The position numbers were made by a program, and so were the translations under genes. A stretch of 64,000 nucleotides of DNA from Halorussus pelagicus (lineage in GTDB: Archaea > Halobacteriota > Halobacteria > Halobacteriales > Haladaptataceae). The stretch is from assembly GCF_004087835.1 (NCBI RefSeq), contig NZ_CP035119.1, positions 310,001 to 374,000 of the forward strand, read 5' to 3'. How positions within the stretch are numbered: position 1 is the stretch's first letter; each line of letters starts with the position of its first letter. This document shows positions 40,636 to 45,767 of this stretch, piece by piece. The notes under the pieces were generated by a model, which saw only the letters and a program-made list of their open reading frames with translations, made no database searches and was not told where the DNA came from.

Positions 40636-41289
40636 CTACTCGTCGAGGTGGTCGCGGAGTCGGTCGAACGCCGCACGCACGCGGTCGTCCCCGCAGTTTC
40701 GCCCGACCGACTCGAAGTACGACAACCGATTTCTGAGTTCCGACTCGTCGTAGGCGTCCACGTCGAGTCGTGAGGCCGCGACGGTCGCCTCCACAACCGC
40801 GCCGAACCCGCGAGTTATCGTTGGCACCGTCTCGCGCTCGACGCCAGAATCCACGGGCGAGAGGGTCCACTCCTCCCACTCGGTGTCGCCGTCCTCGCCG
40901 GAATCGACGCGCTCGGCTTCGATCTCGACCCACGCGTCGGCGGCGTCGAGGACCGGCCGCTCGACCTCGAAGATCGAAAGCGTGGCGTCCACGAAATCGA
41001 CGGGGTCGCGCGCGAACTGGACGTAGCCACCACCCTGCCGGTGGAAGTTCCGGCGAGTACGGGTGTTGCCCCACGTCCGGGCGGTCACGGGCGCGTCGGC
41101 GGAGGGTCCGTTGTCCGGCGGATGCAGGCCCAGCGCCGCGACGTTCCACAGGTCGTTCGGGCCGAGCGTCGTCACCAGCGACTCGGTGACGCCTCGGAAC
41201 TCGACCGGCCAGTCCGCGGGCGACCGAGAGTCGCCCGCGGACTGGCGGTCTTCCGACGTATCCGACACACCGGACGCGTCGTCGCTCAC
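40636..41289 (-). CDS. DUF447 family protein
   Basis: A 217-residue protein starting at GTG 41289, which overlaps the upstream stop (GTGA). Residues from about 30 match DUF447: WPVEFRGVTESLVTTLGPN, LWNVAALGLHPP, TARTWGNTRTRRNFHRQG and GFGAVVEATVAASRLDVDAY. The family adopts an FMN-binding-like fold and is shared by methanogens, haloarchaea and some methylotrophic bacteria. In the last group, as I recall, it belongs to the tetrahydromethanopterin gene set. It is the last gene of the cofD operon. The role is unknown; an involvement in cofactor modification is inferred from company. Confidence 0.9.
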   Translation of the reverse strand: MSDDASGVSDTSEDRQSAGDSRSPADWPVEFRGVTESLVTTLGPNDLWNVAALGLHPPDNGPSADAPVTARTWGNTRTRRNFHRQGGGYVQFARDPVDFVDATLSIFEVERPVLDAADAWVEIEAERVDSGEDGDTEWEEWTLSPVDSGVERETVPTITRGFGAVVEATVAASRLDVDAYDESELRNRLSYFESVGRNCGDDRVRAAFDRLRDHLDE

Positions 41290-42128
41290 ACCGACACCTC
41301 CCCGCGGGCCAGCGCGACGAACAGGCCCGCGGCGGTCAGGTCGGCAGTCGTCCCCGGATTGATGCCGTCGGCGACCAGCGAGTCGGCGAAGGCCTCGACG
41401 ACCTCCGGCCCGCCTTCCAGCGCCTCTTGGGCGCGGACCCGGACGCTCTCTGCGGTCTTCGCGCCGTGCTGTTTCGCCACGAGGGTGTCGGGTTGGCGCG
41501 CGAGCAGTTCGAGATAGACCCGCGCGCCGAGTGCCGACGCCGGGACCGACCCCGCCAGTTCCGCGAGACGGTCGGCCGCCCAGAAGGTGCGCTCGAACTG
41601 ATTGGTCCACTCGGCGGCCACGTCGTCGGATTGGTCGCCGAGCGCCAGCACATCGTAGAGGGTGACGCCGCGCTCCTCGACCGCCGGAACCGCGTCGCTC
41701 CCCCGGCGAACGTCGAGGTCCCCGGCGTCTTCGGGCGGGTCGTCCACGTACACCTCGGCGTGGTCGAACGCCCGGAAGAAGTTCGCCGCGTCCTCGACGG
41801 TCGTCTTTTCGACCACGCGCTCGACGCCTTCCGGCGAGAGGTCGCCGTCCGCGGCGGCCCGGACGAGGGGCACCAGCAGGAGGAGCGCGCCGAACTGGGT
41901 GTTGCCGCCCTCCTGCTGGCTCATTCCCTCGACGGCGCGCTCGAACGCCTCGCCGACCGGAGCGCCGCGCTCGGCCGCGCGCAGGCCCGGTCCCGCGCCG
42001 ACCGTGCCCGCGAGGAAGTGTTCGAATCGCAGGTCCGAGAGGTCCCGCGCCCTATCGACGTTGCCGGGCTTGGGCGTGCCCGCGACTTCCAGCAGGAGCG
42101 CGAGTTGGGCGTTCTCGGCCGGAGTCAT
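41286..42128 (-). CDS. CitG-like triphosphoribosyl-dephospho-CoA synthase family protein
   Basis: A 280-residue protein of the CitG/MdcB family. The start contains the signature LLLEVAGTPKPGNVDRARD, and the body has MSQQEGGNTQFGALLLLVPL, WTNQFERTFWAADRL and ADGINPGTTADLTAAGLF, all family landmarks. CitG makes the prosthetic-group precursor for citrate lyase in bacteria, but no citrate or malonate lyase genes are here. The archaeal proteins therefore probably attach a triphosphoribosyl-like group to another substrate. ATG 42128 overlaps the upstream Dus-like stop (ATGA), and its own stop overlaps the DUF447 start. Confidence 0.9.
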   Translation of the reverse strand: MTPAENAQLALLLEVAGTPKPGNVDRARDLSDLRFEHFLAGTVGAGPGLRAAERGAPVGEAFERAVEGMSQQEGGNTQFGALLLLVPLVRAAADGDLSPEGVERVVEKTTVEDAANFFRAFDHAEVYVDDPPEDAGDLDVRRGSDAVPAVEERGVTLYDVLALGDQSDDVAAEWTNQFERTFWAADRLAELAGSVPASALGARVYLELLARQPDTLVAKQHGAKTAESVRVRAQEALEGGPEVVEAFADSLVADGINPGTTADLTAAGLFVALARGEVSV

Positions 42129-42886
42129 GCGCGCACCTCCGGTTTTTGGGCGACCCACTCGTCCAGTGCGCTCGCCACGCGCCCGAGGACCGCGGGGTCA
42201 TCGCTCGGTCGGCCGACGCTCACCGCGTCCGCGCCGCAGGCCAGATACTCCCTGACGGTCGCCTCGCCGCGGACGCCGTTGTTCGCTATCACGAAGAGGT
42301 CGGTCTCCGCGGCGACGGCGGCCACGTCGGCGACGACACCTTCGGAGTCCATCGCATCGACGTGCATCGCGTCACCGCCCGCGTCGGCGACGGCGCGGGC
42401 GGTCTCGGCGAGGTCCACGCTCGGCACCTCGGCGCGGACTTTGACGCTCACGTCGGGACCTTCGCCCGCCGCGGCGGCGACCTGCTCGCGGAGTCGGTCG
42501 GTGTTTCGGAGGAGGGTCTCGCCCGCGCCCGCCGCGCACATCTCGTCCTGTCGGCAGTGGGCGTTGAGTTCGAGAATCGCGCCGCGGTCCGCACAGATTT
42601 CGGCGACCGCCCGGAGCGGTTCGAGCGAGGTCGTCCGAACGTTGAACCCCGGCCGGAGGTCGGCGTCTTCGAGCGCGGCGAGTTGGTCGTCCACGAAACC
42701 GGCGGGGTCGTCCGGAAGGAACTCGTCGCGGTCGCGTTCGACCAGTTCGCGGGCGGCCTCGCGGGTTGGAGCGTCGAGCGCGATACCGCCGAGGAACGCC
42801 GCGCCAGCGAGCTCATCGGCCGCTCTCGCCCACTCGGCGTCGGACTGGCCGCTGAGACTGGCGAGCGCGAGTCGAGGTTCGAACAT
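42125..42886 (-). CDS. tRNA-dihydrouridine synthase-like FMN TIM-barrel protein
   Basis: A 253-residue protein of the Dus-like fold, shorter than housekeeping Dus enzymes because the C-terminal helical RNA-binding domain is lacking. FMN-barrel elements are recognisable: LELNAHCRQDEM where Dus has an NxGCP motif, VSVKVRAEVP, MHVDAMD, and FVIANNGVRG with GADAVSVGR. ATG 42886 gives a TGATG overlap with cofD; a TTG one codon earlier is less likely. The neighbours (cofD, CitG-like, DUF447) point to coenzyme chemistry rather than tRNA modification. Confidence 0.82.
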   Translation of the reverse strand: MFEPRLALASLSGQSDAEWARAADELAGAAFLGGIALDAPTREAARELVERDRDEFLPDDPAGFVDDQLAALEDADLRPGFNVRTTSLEPLRAVAEICADRGAILELNAHCRQDEMCAAGAGETLLRNTDRLREQVAAAAGEGPDVSVKVRAEVPSVDLAETARAVADAGGDAMHVDAMDSEGVVADVAAVAAETDLFVIANNGVRGEATVREYLACGADAVSVGRPSDDPAVLGRVASALDEWVAQKPEVRA

Positions 42887-43896
42887 CAAATCACCTCCAG
42901 CGCGTCGGCGACGGCGCGGGCCACGCGCTCGGCGTCGTCTTCGTCGGACATCTCGGTATCGGTCTTGACGACCGGGCGGTCGAGGTCGGTGTCGTCGTGG
43001 TCGTCCAGCACGAAGGCGTCGGCGAAGGGGTAGGCCGCCGCGACGCCAGCGGTCGAGGGTTCGAAGCCGACGCCCGCCATCAGGTCGGCCGCCGGGCCGG
43101 AGAACACCTCGTCCTCCACGAAGGGTGAGACCGCGACCACGGTGGCGTCGTCGAGCGCGTCGTGTAGCTCCTCGATGGCGAGCATCGGCCCGATGCTGGT
43201 GACGGGGTTCGAGGGACCGACGACAACGGGACCCTCTTCTATCGCCCCGAGGGCGGCCGGAGCGGGGTCGGCGTCCTCGCCGCCGCGGAACTCGACATGG
43301 TCCACTTCGGGGTCGCCGCGGTGAGCAACCCAGAACTCCTGAAAGTGCATCTCGTCGGCGTACTCGTCGCTCTCTTCGGGGGTGTGGACGATAGAAGCCA
43401 CGGGGTCATCGCTCATCGGGACCACGTCCACGGGCGCGTCGAAAGCATCGGCGAGCAGGCGCGTGACCTCGGTGAGGCTGTGGCCCTCGTCCAACAGACT
43501 GGTCCGGGTCAGGTGGACCGCGCGGTCGCGGTCGCCGATCTCCATGAACTCCGCGACGCCGGAGAAGCGCCGCCAGTTTGCGAGGTGGCGACCGTCGGTC
43601 TGGGCCTCGTCGGGCAGGTAGCGCGGTCCCTTGGCGAGGTCGGCAGTCTCGGCAAGGTTGTGTAACTCCTCGTGGGTTTCGGTGGTGTCGTCGGCGATTC
43701 CCCACCACGTCTCCAAGTCCAGCAGGTCCCCCTGCTCGAAGAGGACGGTATCTACGTCGGGACAGACGAGCAGGCCGCCCAAATCCACGTCGTCGCCGGT
43801 GTTGGCGACGACGGTGGTCTCTGCCGGGTCGAAAACCGACTCGGCTCCGGCGAGTAGCTTCGGGGTTCCGGTCCCCCCGGAGAGAAACGTCGTCAT
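42886..43896 (-). CDS. cofD: 2-phospho-L-lactate transferase (coenzyme F420 synthesis)
   Basis: A 336-residue CofD. It joins the lactyl (or related) phosphoguanylyl precursor to Fo to give F420-0, the deazaflavin hydride carrier. Landmarks include [17 protein letters not shown] at the N-terminus, [32 protein letters not shown] and [13 protein letters not shown]. It is the first gene of a four-gene operon in which all junctions overlap by 1-4 nt. A TATA-like tttaccac lies about 27 bp upstream on the minus strand. The genes for Fo synthesis and cofE are not in the window. Confidence 0.96.
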
Positions 43897-43972: not shown

Positions 43973-44368
43973 CTACTCGAAATCGCCAGCGAGGTCCCGG
44001 CCGGGGAACTTCCGGTATCGCTGAACCAGATACGCCGCGGCGACGTAGTGGACGAGCGGGTTCAGGAAGAGCGCCAGCGACGCGGCCGAGACGAGGGCAC
44101 CGCCGCCGACCCAGAGACGCCGGTCGGGAACCCACCGCGAATCACTCTCGCGGATGTCGCCAGCGTCCCGGTACAGCGCGTGGTAGAAGACCGGGGTGAG
44201 AACCAGCACCGACACGCCGAGCGCCAGCCCCCACGCCGACAGGTCGAACGGGTACGACGACCCGGACGACTGGACCGCGGAGAACGACCACACCACGTTG
44301 AGTGCCGCGGCGGTCAACAGACGGAAACGCCACGGAGTTCGCTCGCTATCGCTCGTAAATTCAGCCAT
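43973..44368 (-). CDS. hypothetical membrane protein
   Basis: A 131-residue protein with three to four membrane helices ([68 protein letters not shown]). It ends in a charged tail, [13 protein letters not shown]. No family is recognised. It lies 76 bp upstream of cofD on the same strand but a promoter-like box separates them, so an operon is uncertain. Confidence 0.7.
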
Positions 44369-44495
44369 GATTACTCTGTATTCGATTCTCGGACACCAGT
44401 TGAAGTATCTGTCACTTCGGCGATGCAGTGGCGTTTCGGCGAGCGCGGCAGTATCGAAAAAGCGAGTGGCGACCCACCCTCGCCACTCCCGGCGG

Positions 44496-44504
44496 TTTTT
44501 ATAC
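44496..44504 (+). promoter_or_regulatory. TATA box for the HD phosphohydrolase gene
   Basis: tttttatac, centred 26 bp before ATG 44526, predicts a leaderless transcript. Confidence 0.6.
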
Positions 44505-44525
44505 GAAGGCGGACAATTCTGTCAC

Positions 44526-45767
44526 ATGAAGACCATCAAGGACTCCGTCCACGACCACATCGAGGTCGAGGGCGTCGCGCGGGCGCTGTTCGACACGCCC
44601 GCGGTCCAGCGACTCAGGCGCATCAAGCAGTTGGGTCCCGCACATCTCGTCTACCCCTCCGCGAACCACACTCGCTTCGAACACAGCCTCGGCGTCTACC
44701 ACCTCGCTTGCGAGGGACTCGACCACCTCGGGATTCAGGGCAAGCAGGCCGAGCGCGTCCGAGCGGCCGCCATCCTCCACGACATCGGGCACGCACCCTA
44801 CAGTCACACCATCGAGGAAGTTATCCACCGCCACACCGGCAAGTACCACGACGACGTTCACGACCTGCTGGCGGACAACGAGGTCGGCGACGTGCTTCGA
44901 GACCACGGTCACAACCCCGACGAAATCGCCGACCTCATCGCTGGCGGCGGGAAACTCGGCCAGTTGGTCTCGGGGGAACTCGACGTGGACCGGATGGACT
45001 ACCTCGTGCGCGACGCCCACCACACCGGCGTCCCCTACGGCACCATTGACCACTCCCGACTGGTCCGGGAACTCACGCTCATCGACGGCGAACTCGTGCT
45101 GGCGGAGGGCAACGTCCCGACCGCCGAGAGCCTGCTTCTGGCGCGCGCGCTGATGAACCCGACCGTCTACAACCACCACGTCACGCGCATCTGTCGGGGG
45201 ATGCTCCAGCGCGCGAGCGAGCGCCTGCTAGACGAGACCGCGATTTCCGCGGACGAACTCCGCCGGATGGACGACCACGACCTCTTCGCGGCGCTTCGAA
45301 GGAGCGCCCCGACCGAGGAGTTCGCTCGGCGACTCGGCGCGCGGGACCTCTACAAGCGGGCGGTCTGGGTCGAGATGGCCGACGTGCCCGACGAGGTTAT
45401 CGACGCCGACCACGACCGGATTCGGCAGTTCGAGGCGGACATCGCGGCCGACGCGGGGGTCGGTCCCGAGTCGGTCATCATCGACGTGTTGGGGCGACCG
45501 AGCATGACCGAGTCCTCGACGCGGGTCATCGTCAACGGCGAGATTCGACGCCTCGGCCAGCAGTCCACGCTGGTCTCGGCGCTCCGGCAGGTCCAGCGCG
45601 AGCAGTGGCGACTCGGGGTGTACGCGCCCGGCGACCACACGGACTCGGTCGGGCACGCCGCCGAGCGAGTGCTGGGACTGGAGACCGACGGCGCGCTCGT
45701 CAGCGAGGTCCGGTCGCCCGGCCAGCGCACGACGCTGGACGAGTTCGGGGCGCAAGGCGAGGAGTGA
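44526..45767 (+). CDS. HD-superfamily phosphohydrolase
   Basis: A 413-residue metal-dependent phosphohydrolase of the dGTPase/SAMHD1-like branch. It has RLRRIKQLGPAHLVYPSANH and TRFEHSLGVYHLA (first His), the HD pair in AAILHDIGHAPYSHT, and the distal Asp in GELDVDRMDYLVRDAHHTG. These are the metal and nucleotide contacts of the family. Archaeal relatives may hydrolyse nucleotides such as dNTPs; substrate is unproven. The C-terminal 120 residues form a variable helical domain. The gene is monocistronic, with a TATA box directly upstream. Confidence 0.93.
   Translation: MKTIKDSVHDHIEVEGVARALFDTPAVQRLRRIKQLGPAHLVYPSANHTRFEHSLGVYHLACEGLDHLGIQGKQAERVRAAAILHDIGHAPYSHTIEEVIHRHTGKYHDDVHDLLADNEVGDVLRDHGHNPDEIADLIAGGGKLGQLVSGELDVDRMDYLVRDAHHTGVPYGTIDHSRLVRELTLIDGELVLAEGNVPTAESLLLARALMNPTVYNHHVTRICRGMLQRASERLLDETAISADELRRMDDHDLFAALRRSAPTEEFARRLGARDLYKRAVWVEMADVPDEVIDADHDRIRQFEADIAADAGVGPESVIIDVLGRPSMTESSTRVIVNGEIRRLGQQSTLVSALRQVQREQWRLGVYAPGDHTDSVGHAAERVLGLETDGALVSEVRSPGQRTTLDEFGAQGEE

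What the first reader, a model, noticed from the sequence alone, without database searches (positions are those of the whole stretch)
40636..43896. Four overlapping genes: cofD, Dus-like barrel, CitG-like, DUF447
Every junction overlaps by 1-4 nt, so the four proteins are made together. CofD makes coenzyme F420. The Dus-like barrel lacks the RNA-binding domain and CitG-like proteins normally add triphosphoribosyl groups to dephospho-CoA, yet no lyase is present. As I recall, DUF447 and CitG-like genes also belong to the tetrahydromethanopterin set of methylotrophs. The block may describe an unrecognised step in a cofactor pathway, such as a modified F420, pterin or ribosyl cofactor.
Basis: partly seen in the sequence, partly recalled or inferred. 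Interest (0 to 1): 0.65.

Follow-up and report, generated by a model that had tools for sequence, protein, structure and literature searches.

The report
F420 and methanopterin genes share operon
In salt-loving archaea, two unstudied enzymes encoded right after an F420-cofactor gene are inherited and lost together with genes of the methanopterin (one-carbon carrier) pathway, so they are strong candidates for missing steps in making that cofactor and suggest that haloarchaea still make a form of it.

Summary
The four overlapping genes are real (cofD, Dus-like FMN barrel, CitG-like, DUF447; minus strand, overlaps of 1-4 nt). They split into two units. CitG-DUF447 is one unit: adjacent in 97 of 110 genomes of the phylum, and missing together from the same haloarchaea. 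Those genomes also lack beta-RFAP synthase (MptG, first committed step of tetrahydromethanopterin synthesis) and Mer (F420-dependent methylene-H4MPT reductase), but keep cofD and Dus. One haloarchaeal genus has mer-citG-DUF447-mptG as one operon. Four other lineages have DmrX, the last H4MPT enzyme, just after DUF447. Sulfolobus acidocaldarius has CitG, DUF447 and MptG but no cofD, so the pair is not for F420. DUF447 is an FMN protein by structure. Proposed chemistry (inferred): DUF447 reductively opens the aryl-riboside ring to the ribitol; CitG-like adds the second, alpha-linked ribose. The Dus-like protein follows cofD, lacks the tRNA-binding domain, and may be the missing archaeal dehydro-F420-0 reductase (weak). 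Main counter-evidence: haloarchaea are reported to use folate, mch is not co-lost, and haloarchaeal MptG scores below NCBI's equivalog cut-off.

The parts
42886..43896 (-). cofD, 2-phospho-L-lactate transferase of coenzyme F420 synthesis (336 aa)
   Evidence: TIGR01819 equivalog 390.6 bits, cut-off 257.45; only copy in the genome
42125..42886 (-). Dus-like FMN TIM barrel of the MJ0144 type without the C-terminal tRNA-binding helical domain; invariant AHCRQ motif with the presumed catalytic Cys
   Evidence: TIGR00736 127.5 bits, below cut-off 218.7; model pLDDT 96; matches tRNA-Dus, dihydropyrimidine dehydrogenase and dihydroorotate dehydrogenase, Z 20-24; invariant columns
41286..42128 (-). 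CitG-like protein (280 aa), candidate alpha-ribosyltransferase of the H4MPT-type side chain
   Evidence: PF01874 222.7 bits; far below the CitG/MdcB equivalog cut-offs (24 and 22 bits against 272 and 282); relative of solved 3h9p
40636..41289 (-). DUF447 FMN-binding split-barrel protein (217 aa), candidate FMN reductase acting on the MptG product
   Evidence: PF04289 and PF20766; model matches FMN-bound 2iml and 2nr4 and Rhodopirellula 3b5m, Z 23-20

Best explanation
The block is a two-cofactor operon. cofD (with the Dus-like protein immediately behind it) belongs to F420; the CitG-like and DUF447 proteins are a pair of H4MPT-type side-chain enzymes that work downstream of MptG (beta-RFAP synthase), wherever in the genome mptG lies. 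Proposed mechanism. MptG joins pABA and PRPP to the C-riboside RFAP. DUF447, an FMN protein, reduces C1' of the ribofuranosyl ring; the para-amino group expels the ring oxygen as an aza-quinone-methide, which takes a hydride from FMNH2, giving the open 1-deoxyribitol. The CitG-like enzyme then does CitG chemistry on this arylribitol instead of on dephospho-CoA: the 5'-OH displaces adenine from ATP (or PPi from PRPP), giving the alpha-linked 5-(tri)phosphoribosyl group found in methanopterin; that explains why no citrate or malonate lyase is near. In haloarchaea the product would be a methanopterin-like one-carbon carrier, used with F420H2 by Mer, which would explain why F420 and pterin genes are made together. 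SHOWN here: gene order, co-occurrence, co-loss, the FMN-protein fold of DUF447, and retention of key MptG residues. INFERRED: the order and chemistry of the two steps, and that haloarchaea make the product. The pathway assignment is about 0.8 likely, the exact step assignment about 0.3, an H4MPT-like carrier in haloarchaea about 0.4.
For: (1) CitG-DUF447 adjacency in 97/110 genomes. (2) DmrX (TIGR02700, dihydromethanopterin reductase) directly after DUF447 in four lineages, and dus-marker9-citG-DUF447-DmrX in named Methanosarcina and Methanolobus. (3) Co-loss: in 26 genomes of one haloarchaeal family CitG is absent from G008, G060, G119, G261, MptG from the same four, Mer from the same four plus two fragmented drafts; DUF447 is absent from the first three. 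Two independent losses (genera g2 and g4). (4) Operon mer-citG-DUF447-mptG in genus g101: G230 twice, G257, G258 (the DUF447 position was read only in G230); DUF447-mptG in f34, with mer in G128. (5) The control S. acidocaldarius has CitG, DUF447 and MptG but no cofD, Dus or mch. (6) DUF447 structures bind FMN. (7) Haloarchaeal MptG keeps R26, the HVGLGSGTQ loop and GRGG.SG.GVA in most members; D19 is N, and D19N keeps activity in the Methanothermobacter enzyme (PMC6787355). (8) About seven H4MPT enzymes were unidentified (PMC3087415).
Against: A haloarchaeal annotation review states that haloarchaea use folate, that methanopterin-specific enzymes are absent, and that HVO_2628 (the MptG homologue) probably is not RFAP synthase (PMC8305020). 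Haloarchaeal MptG is below NCBI's RFAP-synthase equivalog cut-off (165 against 328 bits). mch is kept in the genomes that lost the set, and absent from f31 genomes that have DUF447 and MptG. CitG and DUF447 are apart in family f10 and in G025 and G118. Only two independent losses were found. No bacterial H4MPT cluster could be read here apart from the Rhodopirellula DUF447 structure. Which step each enzyme does is not tested.
Confidence: 0.62

Rival explanations
1. Same families, other product in haloarchaea: MptG, CitG-like and DUF447 still act together, but make an RFAP-derived ribosyl compound (a folate variant or another small cofactor) that is not the one-carbon carrier of Mch.
For: mch does not follow the set; folate is the reported carrier (PMC8305020); haloarchaeal MptG is divergent.
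Against: Mer is co-lost with the set and lies in the same operon in genus g101 and in G128, which ties the product to a one-carbon reductase.
Confidence: 0.25
2. Modified F420: all four proteins make a ribosylated or otherwise altered deazaflavin.
For: Overlapping genes with cofD in haloarchaea, and the same order in lineages f6 and f20.
Against: CitG and DUF447 occur without cofD in S. acidocaldarius and next to DmrX or mptG rather than cofD in many lineages; four haloarchaea lost the pair, and the three complete ones keep cofD and Dus.
Confidence: 0.06
3. Dus-like = archaeal dehydro-F420-0 reductase (the postulated CofX): CofD makes dehydro-F420-0 from the PEP-derived donor, and the Dus-like FMN enzyme, with its cysteine as acid, reduces the enolpyruvyl C=C. 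(This concerns the Dus-like gene only and is compatible with the best explanation.)
For: Directly behind cofD in all 18 haloarchaea of the sample with a Dus match and in seven genomes of other lineages, and still there when the pterin genes are lost; fold of FMN enzymes that reduce conjugated C=C; invariant Cys. Bashiri et al. postulate an unknown archaeal reductase away from cofE (PMC6450877).
Against: 46 of 120 genomes gave no TIGR00736 match although nearly all have cofD; in methanogens it is fused to methanogenesis marker 9 and sits with CitG, not cofD; archaeal CofC/CofD pairs assayed preferred 2-phospholactate (PMC8764529).
Confidence: 0.18
4. The Dus-like protein is a tRNA dihydrouridine synthase that merely travels with the operon.
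For: Closest fold matches include tRNA-Dus (Z 22-24); the active-site cysteine is kept.
Against: No C-terminal tRNA-binding domain (254 aa; alignment ends at about residue 244 of 308 in 3b0p); NMGCP-type motif replaced by AHCRQ; below the MJ0144-family cut-off.
Confidence: 0.08

Closest known systems
Tetrahydromethanopterin biosynthesis (MptG, DmrX) of methanogens and methylotrophs
   Same: CitG-DUF447 lie next to DmrX in methanogen lineages and next to mptG and mer in some haloarchaea; co-lost with mptG.
   Different: The window organism is a haloarchaeon, a group described as folate users; its mptG lies about 375 kb away in the genome and is divergent.
CitG / MdcB triphosphoribosyl-dephospho-CoA synthase
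   Same: PF01874 domain; the subfamily here has conserved PKPGNVDR, GGNTHFG and NPGTTAD motifs.
   Different: Far below the CitG and MdcB equivalog cut-offs; partner is DUF447, with no citrate or malonate lyase genes seen in the neighbourhoods read.
tRNA dihydrouridine synthases and dihydropyrimidine/dihydroorotate dehydrogenases
   Same: FMN TIM-barrel fold, Z 20-24; active-site Cys.
   Different: No tRNA-binding domain, AHCRQ motif, partner is cofD; in methanogens fused to methanogenesis marker 9.
DUF447 structures 2iml, 2nr4, 2ptf, 3b5m
   Same: Same fold, Z 20-23 over nearly the whole length for three of them; FMN bound in 2iml, 2nr4 and 2ptf by their titles.
   Different: No function is assigned in their titles; only 23-26% identical to the window protein.
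F420 synthesis: CofD, FbiB C-terminal reductase, postulated CofX
   Same: CofD is a clear member.
   Different: The FbiB reductase has a nitroreductase fold (PMC6450877); the Dus-like candidate is a TIM barrel.

Membership tests
CofD (2-phospho-L-lactate transferase) | NCBI equivalog model TIGR01819 over its cut-off | tested here: met
   390.6 bits against 257.45
CitG/MdcB triphosphoribosyl-dephospho-CoA synthase | CitG domain PF01874 | tested here: met
   222.7 bits, whole model
CitG/MdcB triphosphoribosyl-dephospho-CoA synthase | equivalog models TIGR03125 / TIGR03132 | tested here: not met
   24.1 and 22.1 bits against 272.3 and 282.35
CitG/MdcB triphosphoribosyl-dephospho-CoA synthase | genes for citrate or malonate lyase nearby | tested here: not met
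   none in the annotated Natrinema region nor among the neighbours that were named; the rest of the genome was not searched for lyases
tRNA dihydrouridine synthase | FMN TIM barrel with catalytic Cys | tested here: met
   fold Z 23.6 to 3b0p; Cys invariant in 21 sequences, in AHCRQ rather than NMGCP
tRNA dihydrouridine synthase | C-terminal helical tRNA-binding domain | tested here: not met
   254 aa; only residues 2-244 of 308 of 3b0p are matched and nothing is left over in the model
MJ0144 family (TIGR00736) | curated cut-off 218.7 bits | tested here: not met
   127.5 bits
DUF447 | PF04289 + PF20766 over cut-off and the FMN split-barrel fold | tested here: met
   69 and 47.6 bits; Z 22.9 to 2iml
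H4MPT biosynthesis (pathway membership of CitG+DUF447) | inherited and lost with MptG | tested here: met
   absent together from G008, G060, G119, and CitG/MptG also from G261; naive P about 7e-5 in 26 genomes, but only two independent losses
H4MPT biosynthesis (pathway membership of CitG+DUF447) | gene neighbourhood with mptG, DmrX or mer | tested here: met
H4MPT biosynthesis (pathway membership of CitG+DUF447) | co-loss with the C1 enzyme Mch | tested here: not met
   mch kept in G008, G060, G119
H4MPT biosynthesis (pathway membership of CitG+DUF447) | enzymatic step or mutant phenotype | not testable with these tools
   needs enzymes, substrates or deletion strains
RFAP synthase (own genome, G000:C1:726910-727851) | subfamily TIGR00144 and active-site residues | tested here: met
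   158.8 against 113.5 bits; R26 and the phosphate loop kept, D19 to N
RFAP synthase (own genome, G000:C1:726910-727851) | equivalog NF040726 | tested here: not met
   165.1 against 328 bits

The most novel reading that the evidence does not exclude
Haloarchaea, described as folate users, still make a methanopterin-type arylribitol C1 carrier; the CitG-like and DUF447 proteins are the missing alpha-ribosyltransferase and FMN ring-opening reductase of that pathway in all H4MPT organisms, the triphosphate left by CitG chemistry perhaps driving the later phosphodiester bond to hydroxyglutarate, and the Dus-like protein is the missing archaeal dehydro-F420-0 reductase.
Probability: 0.12. Interest if true: 0.85.

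Novelty: new variant of a known kind. Interest (0 to 1): 0.62.

Why it matters
Several enzymes of tetrahydromethanopterin synthesis were listed as unidentified (PMC3087415), although the cofactor is central to methanogenesis and methylotrophy. Two concrete, soluble candidates with defined expected chemistries make this testable at once, also in a genetically easy host (Haloferax volcanii). If haloarchaea make a methanopterin-like carrier, the published view of their one-carbon metabolism (PMC8305020) changes.

Tried and rejected
The search for related loci with the DUF447 alignment A1 failed (no stretch conserved enough); with CitG (A5) it returned only 80 euryarchaeal loci, so methylotrophic bacteria and Thermoproteota were not reached beyond the S. 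acidocaldarius control. DUF447 has no tblastn match in plasmids, so no bacterial cluster could be read. PMC1151760 (Kalyuzhnaya 2005, methylotroph gene islands) is not held; the recollection that CitG-like and DUF447 genes lie in methylotroph H4MPT clusters therefore stays untested, apart from the Rhodopirellula DUF447 structure. Searches for DUF447 with methanopterin and for triphosphoribosyl-dephospho-CoA with tetrahydromethanopterin found no paper. Alignment A4 holds a stray 3-base row by my mistake and was used only for reading motifs. The promoter/terminator scan (bacterial consensus) is uninformative for an archaeon. 'All four in one pathway' was rejected because of the independent losses. 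The hypergeometric P values ignore phylogeny: there are two independent losses, not four.
Full report
WHAT IS THERE. The window is part of a haloarchaeal genome: its cofD is 66% identical to that of Natrinema thermotolerans, which has the same genes. Four genes on the minus strand overlap head to tail: cofD 43896-42886, Dus-like 42886-42125, CitG-like 42128-41286, DUF447 41289-40636. Family assignments: TIGR01819 CofD over cut-off; TIGR00736 (MJ0144-type Dus-like) below cut-off; PF01874 CitG over cut-off but far below the CitG/MdcB equivalogs; PF04289/PF20766 DUF447.

TWO UNITS, NOT ONE. I searched 120 genomes of the phylum for each family. CitG and DUF447 are adjacent on one strand in 97 of the 110 genomes that have both. 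cofD and Dus are adjacent in all 25 pairs checked: 18 haloarchaea and seven genomes of lineages f6 and f20 (cofD positions far from any Dus gene were not entered in that script; in methanogens such as f7 the two are apart). The four-gene order cofD-Dus-CitG-DUF447 recurs in f6 and f20 as well as in haloarchaea, so it is old or selected. But the units separate: three complete haloarchaeal genomes (G008, G060, G119) lack both CitG and DUF447 and keep an intact cofD-Dus pair; G018 lacks a detectable Dus and keeps cofD-CitG-DUF447; in Natrinema three unrelated genes lie between the two pairs. Sulfolobus acidocaldarius, a control genome, has CitG and DUF447 but no cofD.

THE CitG-DUF447 UNIT GOES WITH METHANOPTERIN GENES. 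In 155 haloarchaeal genomes, MptG (beta-RFAP synthase family, TIGR00144) is missing from the same three complete genomes as DUF447, plus drafts. In the 26 genomes of their family, CitG and MptG are missing from exactly the same four (G008, G060, G119, G261), and Mer, the F420-dependent methylene-H4MPT reductase, from these four and two highly fragmented drafts. Two losses are independent, since genomes of the same genus as G119 keep the genes. In genus g101 the genes form one operon, mer-citG-DUF447-mptG (G230 twice; G257 and G258 show mer, citG and mptG in the same order and spacing); in f34, DUF447-mptG, with mer in G128. In lineages f6, f20, f7 and f19 the gene after DUF447 is DmrX, dihydromethanopterin reductase, the last step of H4MPT synthesis (TIGR02700; three of four over cut-off, the fourth at 244 against 251 bits), and named Methanosarcina and Methanolobus contigs show dus-marker9-citG-DUF447-DmrX. 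Loci L035 and L094 link cofD to DmrX in one string.

STRUCTURE AND RESIDUES. The DUF447 model (pLDDT 95) matches FMN-bound structures from Archaeoglobus and Methanosarcina and one from the planctomycete Rhodopirellula over its length (Z 20-23). The Dus-like model (pLDDT 96) matches tRNA-Dus, dihydropyrimidine dehydrogenase and dihydroorotate dehydrogenase (Z 20-24), ends where the Dus barrel ends, and has an invariant AHCRQ motif. In methanogens this protein carries the methanogenesis marker 9 domain at its C-terminus; the haloarchaeal and f20 proteins do not. Haloarchaeal MptG keeps R26 and the phosphate-binding loop and has N at D19; D19N of the Methanothermobacter enzyme stays active (PMC6787355).

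MECHANISM. Established: MptG makes a C-riboside of aminobenzene; H4MPT has an open ribitol and a second, alpha-linked ribose phosphate (general knowledge of the cofactor); about seven enzymes were unassigned (PMC3087415). Inferred: DUF447, an FMN protein, is suited to reduce the C-riboside, whose para-amino group can open the ring; CitG chemistry (attack of a hydroxyl on C1' of ATP with loss of adenine and inversion to alpha) is suited to add the second ribose, and would leave a triphosphate. This removes the puzzle of a CitG without a lyase. The F420 link in haloarchaea is explained by Mer, which needs F420H2 and the pterin. I put the pathway assignment at about 0.8, the exact chemistry at about 0.3, and a methanopterin-like carrier in haloarchaea at about 0.4.

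AGAINST. The haloarchaeal annotation review holds that these organisms use folate and doubts that HVO_2628 is RFAP synthase (PMC8305020). The haloarchaeal MptG fails NCBI's equivalog cut-off. mch stays in the genomes that lost the set and is missing in others that have it, so the product need not be the substrate of Mch there. Co-loss rests on two independent events. CitG and DUF447 are apart in f10 and in two other genomes.

THE Dus-LIKE PROTEIN. It travels with cofD in haloarchaea and with CitG in methanogens, and is not detected in many genomes that have cofD. One idea worth a test is that it is the dehydro-F420-0 reductase postulated for archaea (PMC6450877); assays of archaeal CofC/CofD pairs that prefer 2-phospholactate speak against a need for it (PMC8764529). 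I give this 0.18.

VERDICT. The families are known; the tie to MptG, Mer and DmrX by co-loss and operon structure in haloarchaea was not found in the papers available here, but the library is partial and the methylotroph literature could not be read.

Noticed in passing
44196-45767 (+); also L034:5113-6291, L036:13802-14944, L041:1699-2913, L042:1473-2660, L068:6459-7688: An HD-domain phosphohydrolase (HD + HD_assoc_2) lies next to the cofD block in the window; proteins with the same KDPIH...QRLRRIKQLG start lie near it in several distant lineages. It might act on a triphosphate intermediate.
   Followed up: no
L034:9742-10431, L035:10897-11562, L037:7408-8079, L041:12075-12737: A PHP-domain phosphoesterase gene lies near DmrX or DUF447 in several lineages, a possible phosphatase of the pathway.
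   Followed up: partly
L073:8911-9852 and L073:12415-13335 (G000:C1): In the window's own genus mptG and mch often lie within a few kb of each other; in G231 they are 0.6 kb apart on the same strand.
   Followed up: no
L037:10445-11548, L035:7610-8671: The methanogenesis marker 9 domain is fused to the Dus-like barrel in the methanogen and f6 loci read here that carry the Dus-like gene next to CitG; the haloarchaeal and f20 proteins lack it.
   Followed up: partly
G003:C1:1917303-1919495, and G033, G080, G096, G106 (family f8); G091 and G101 (f24): A second, divergent CofD paralogue lies beside or near cofD in these genomes.
   Followed up: no
L049:10043-10396: A second DUF447 copy, apparently truncated (125 aa frame), lies 1.3 kb after the full one.
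   Followed up: no
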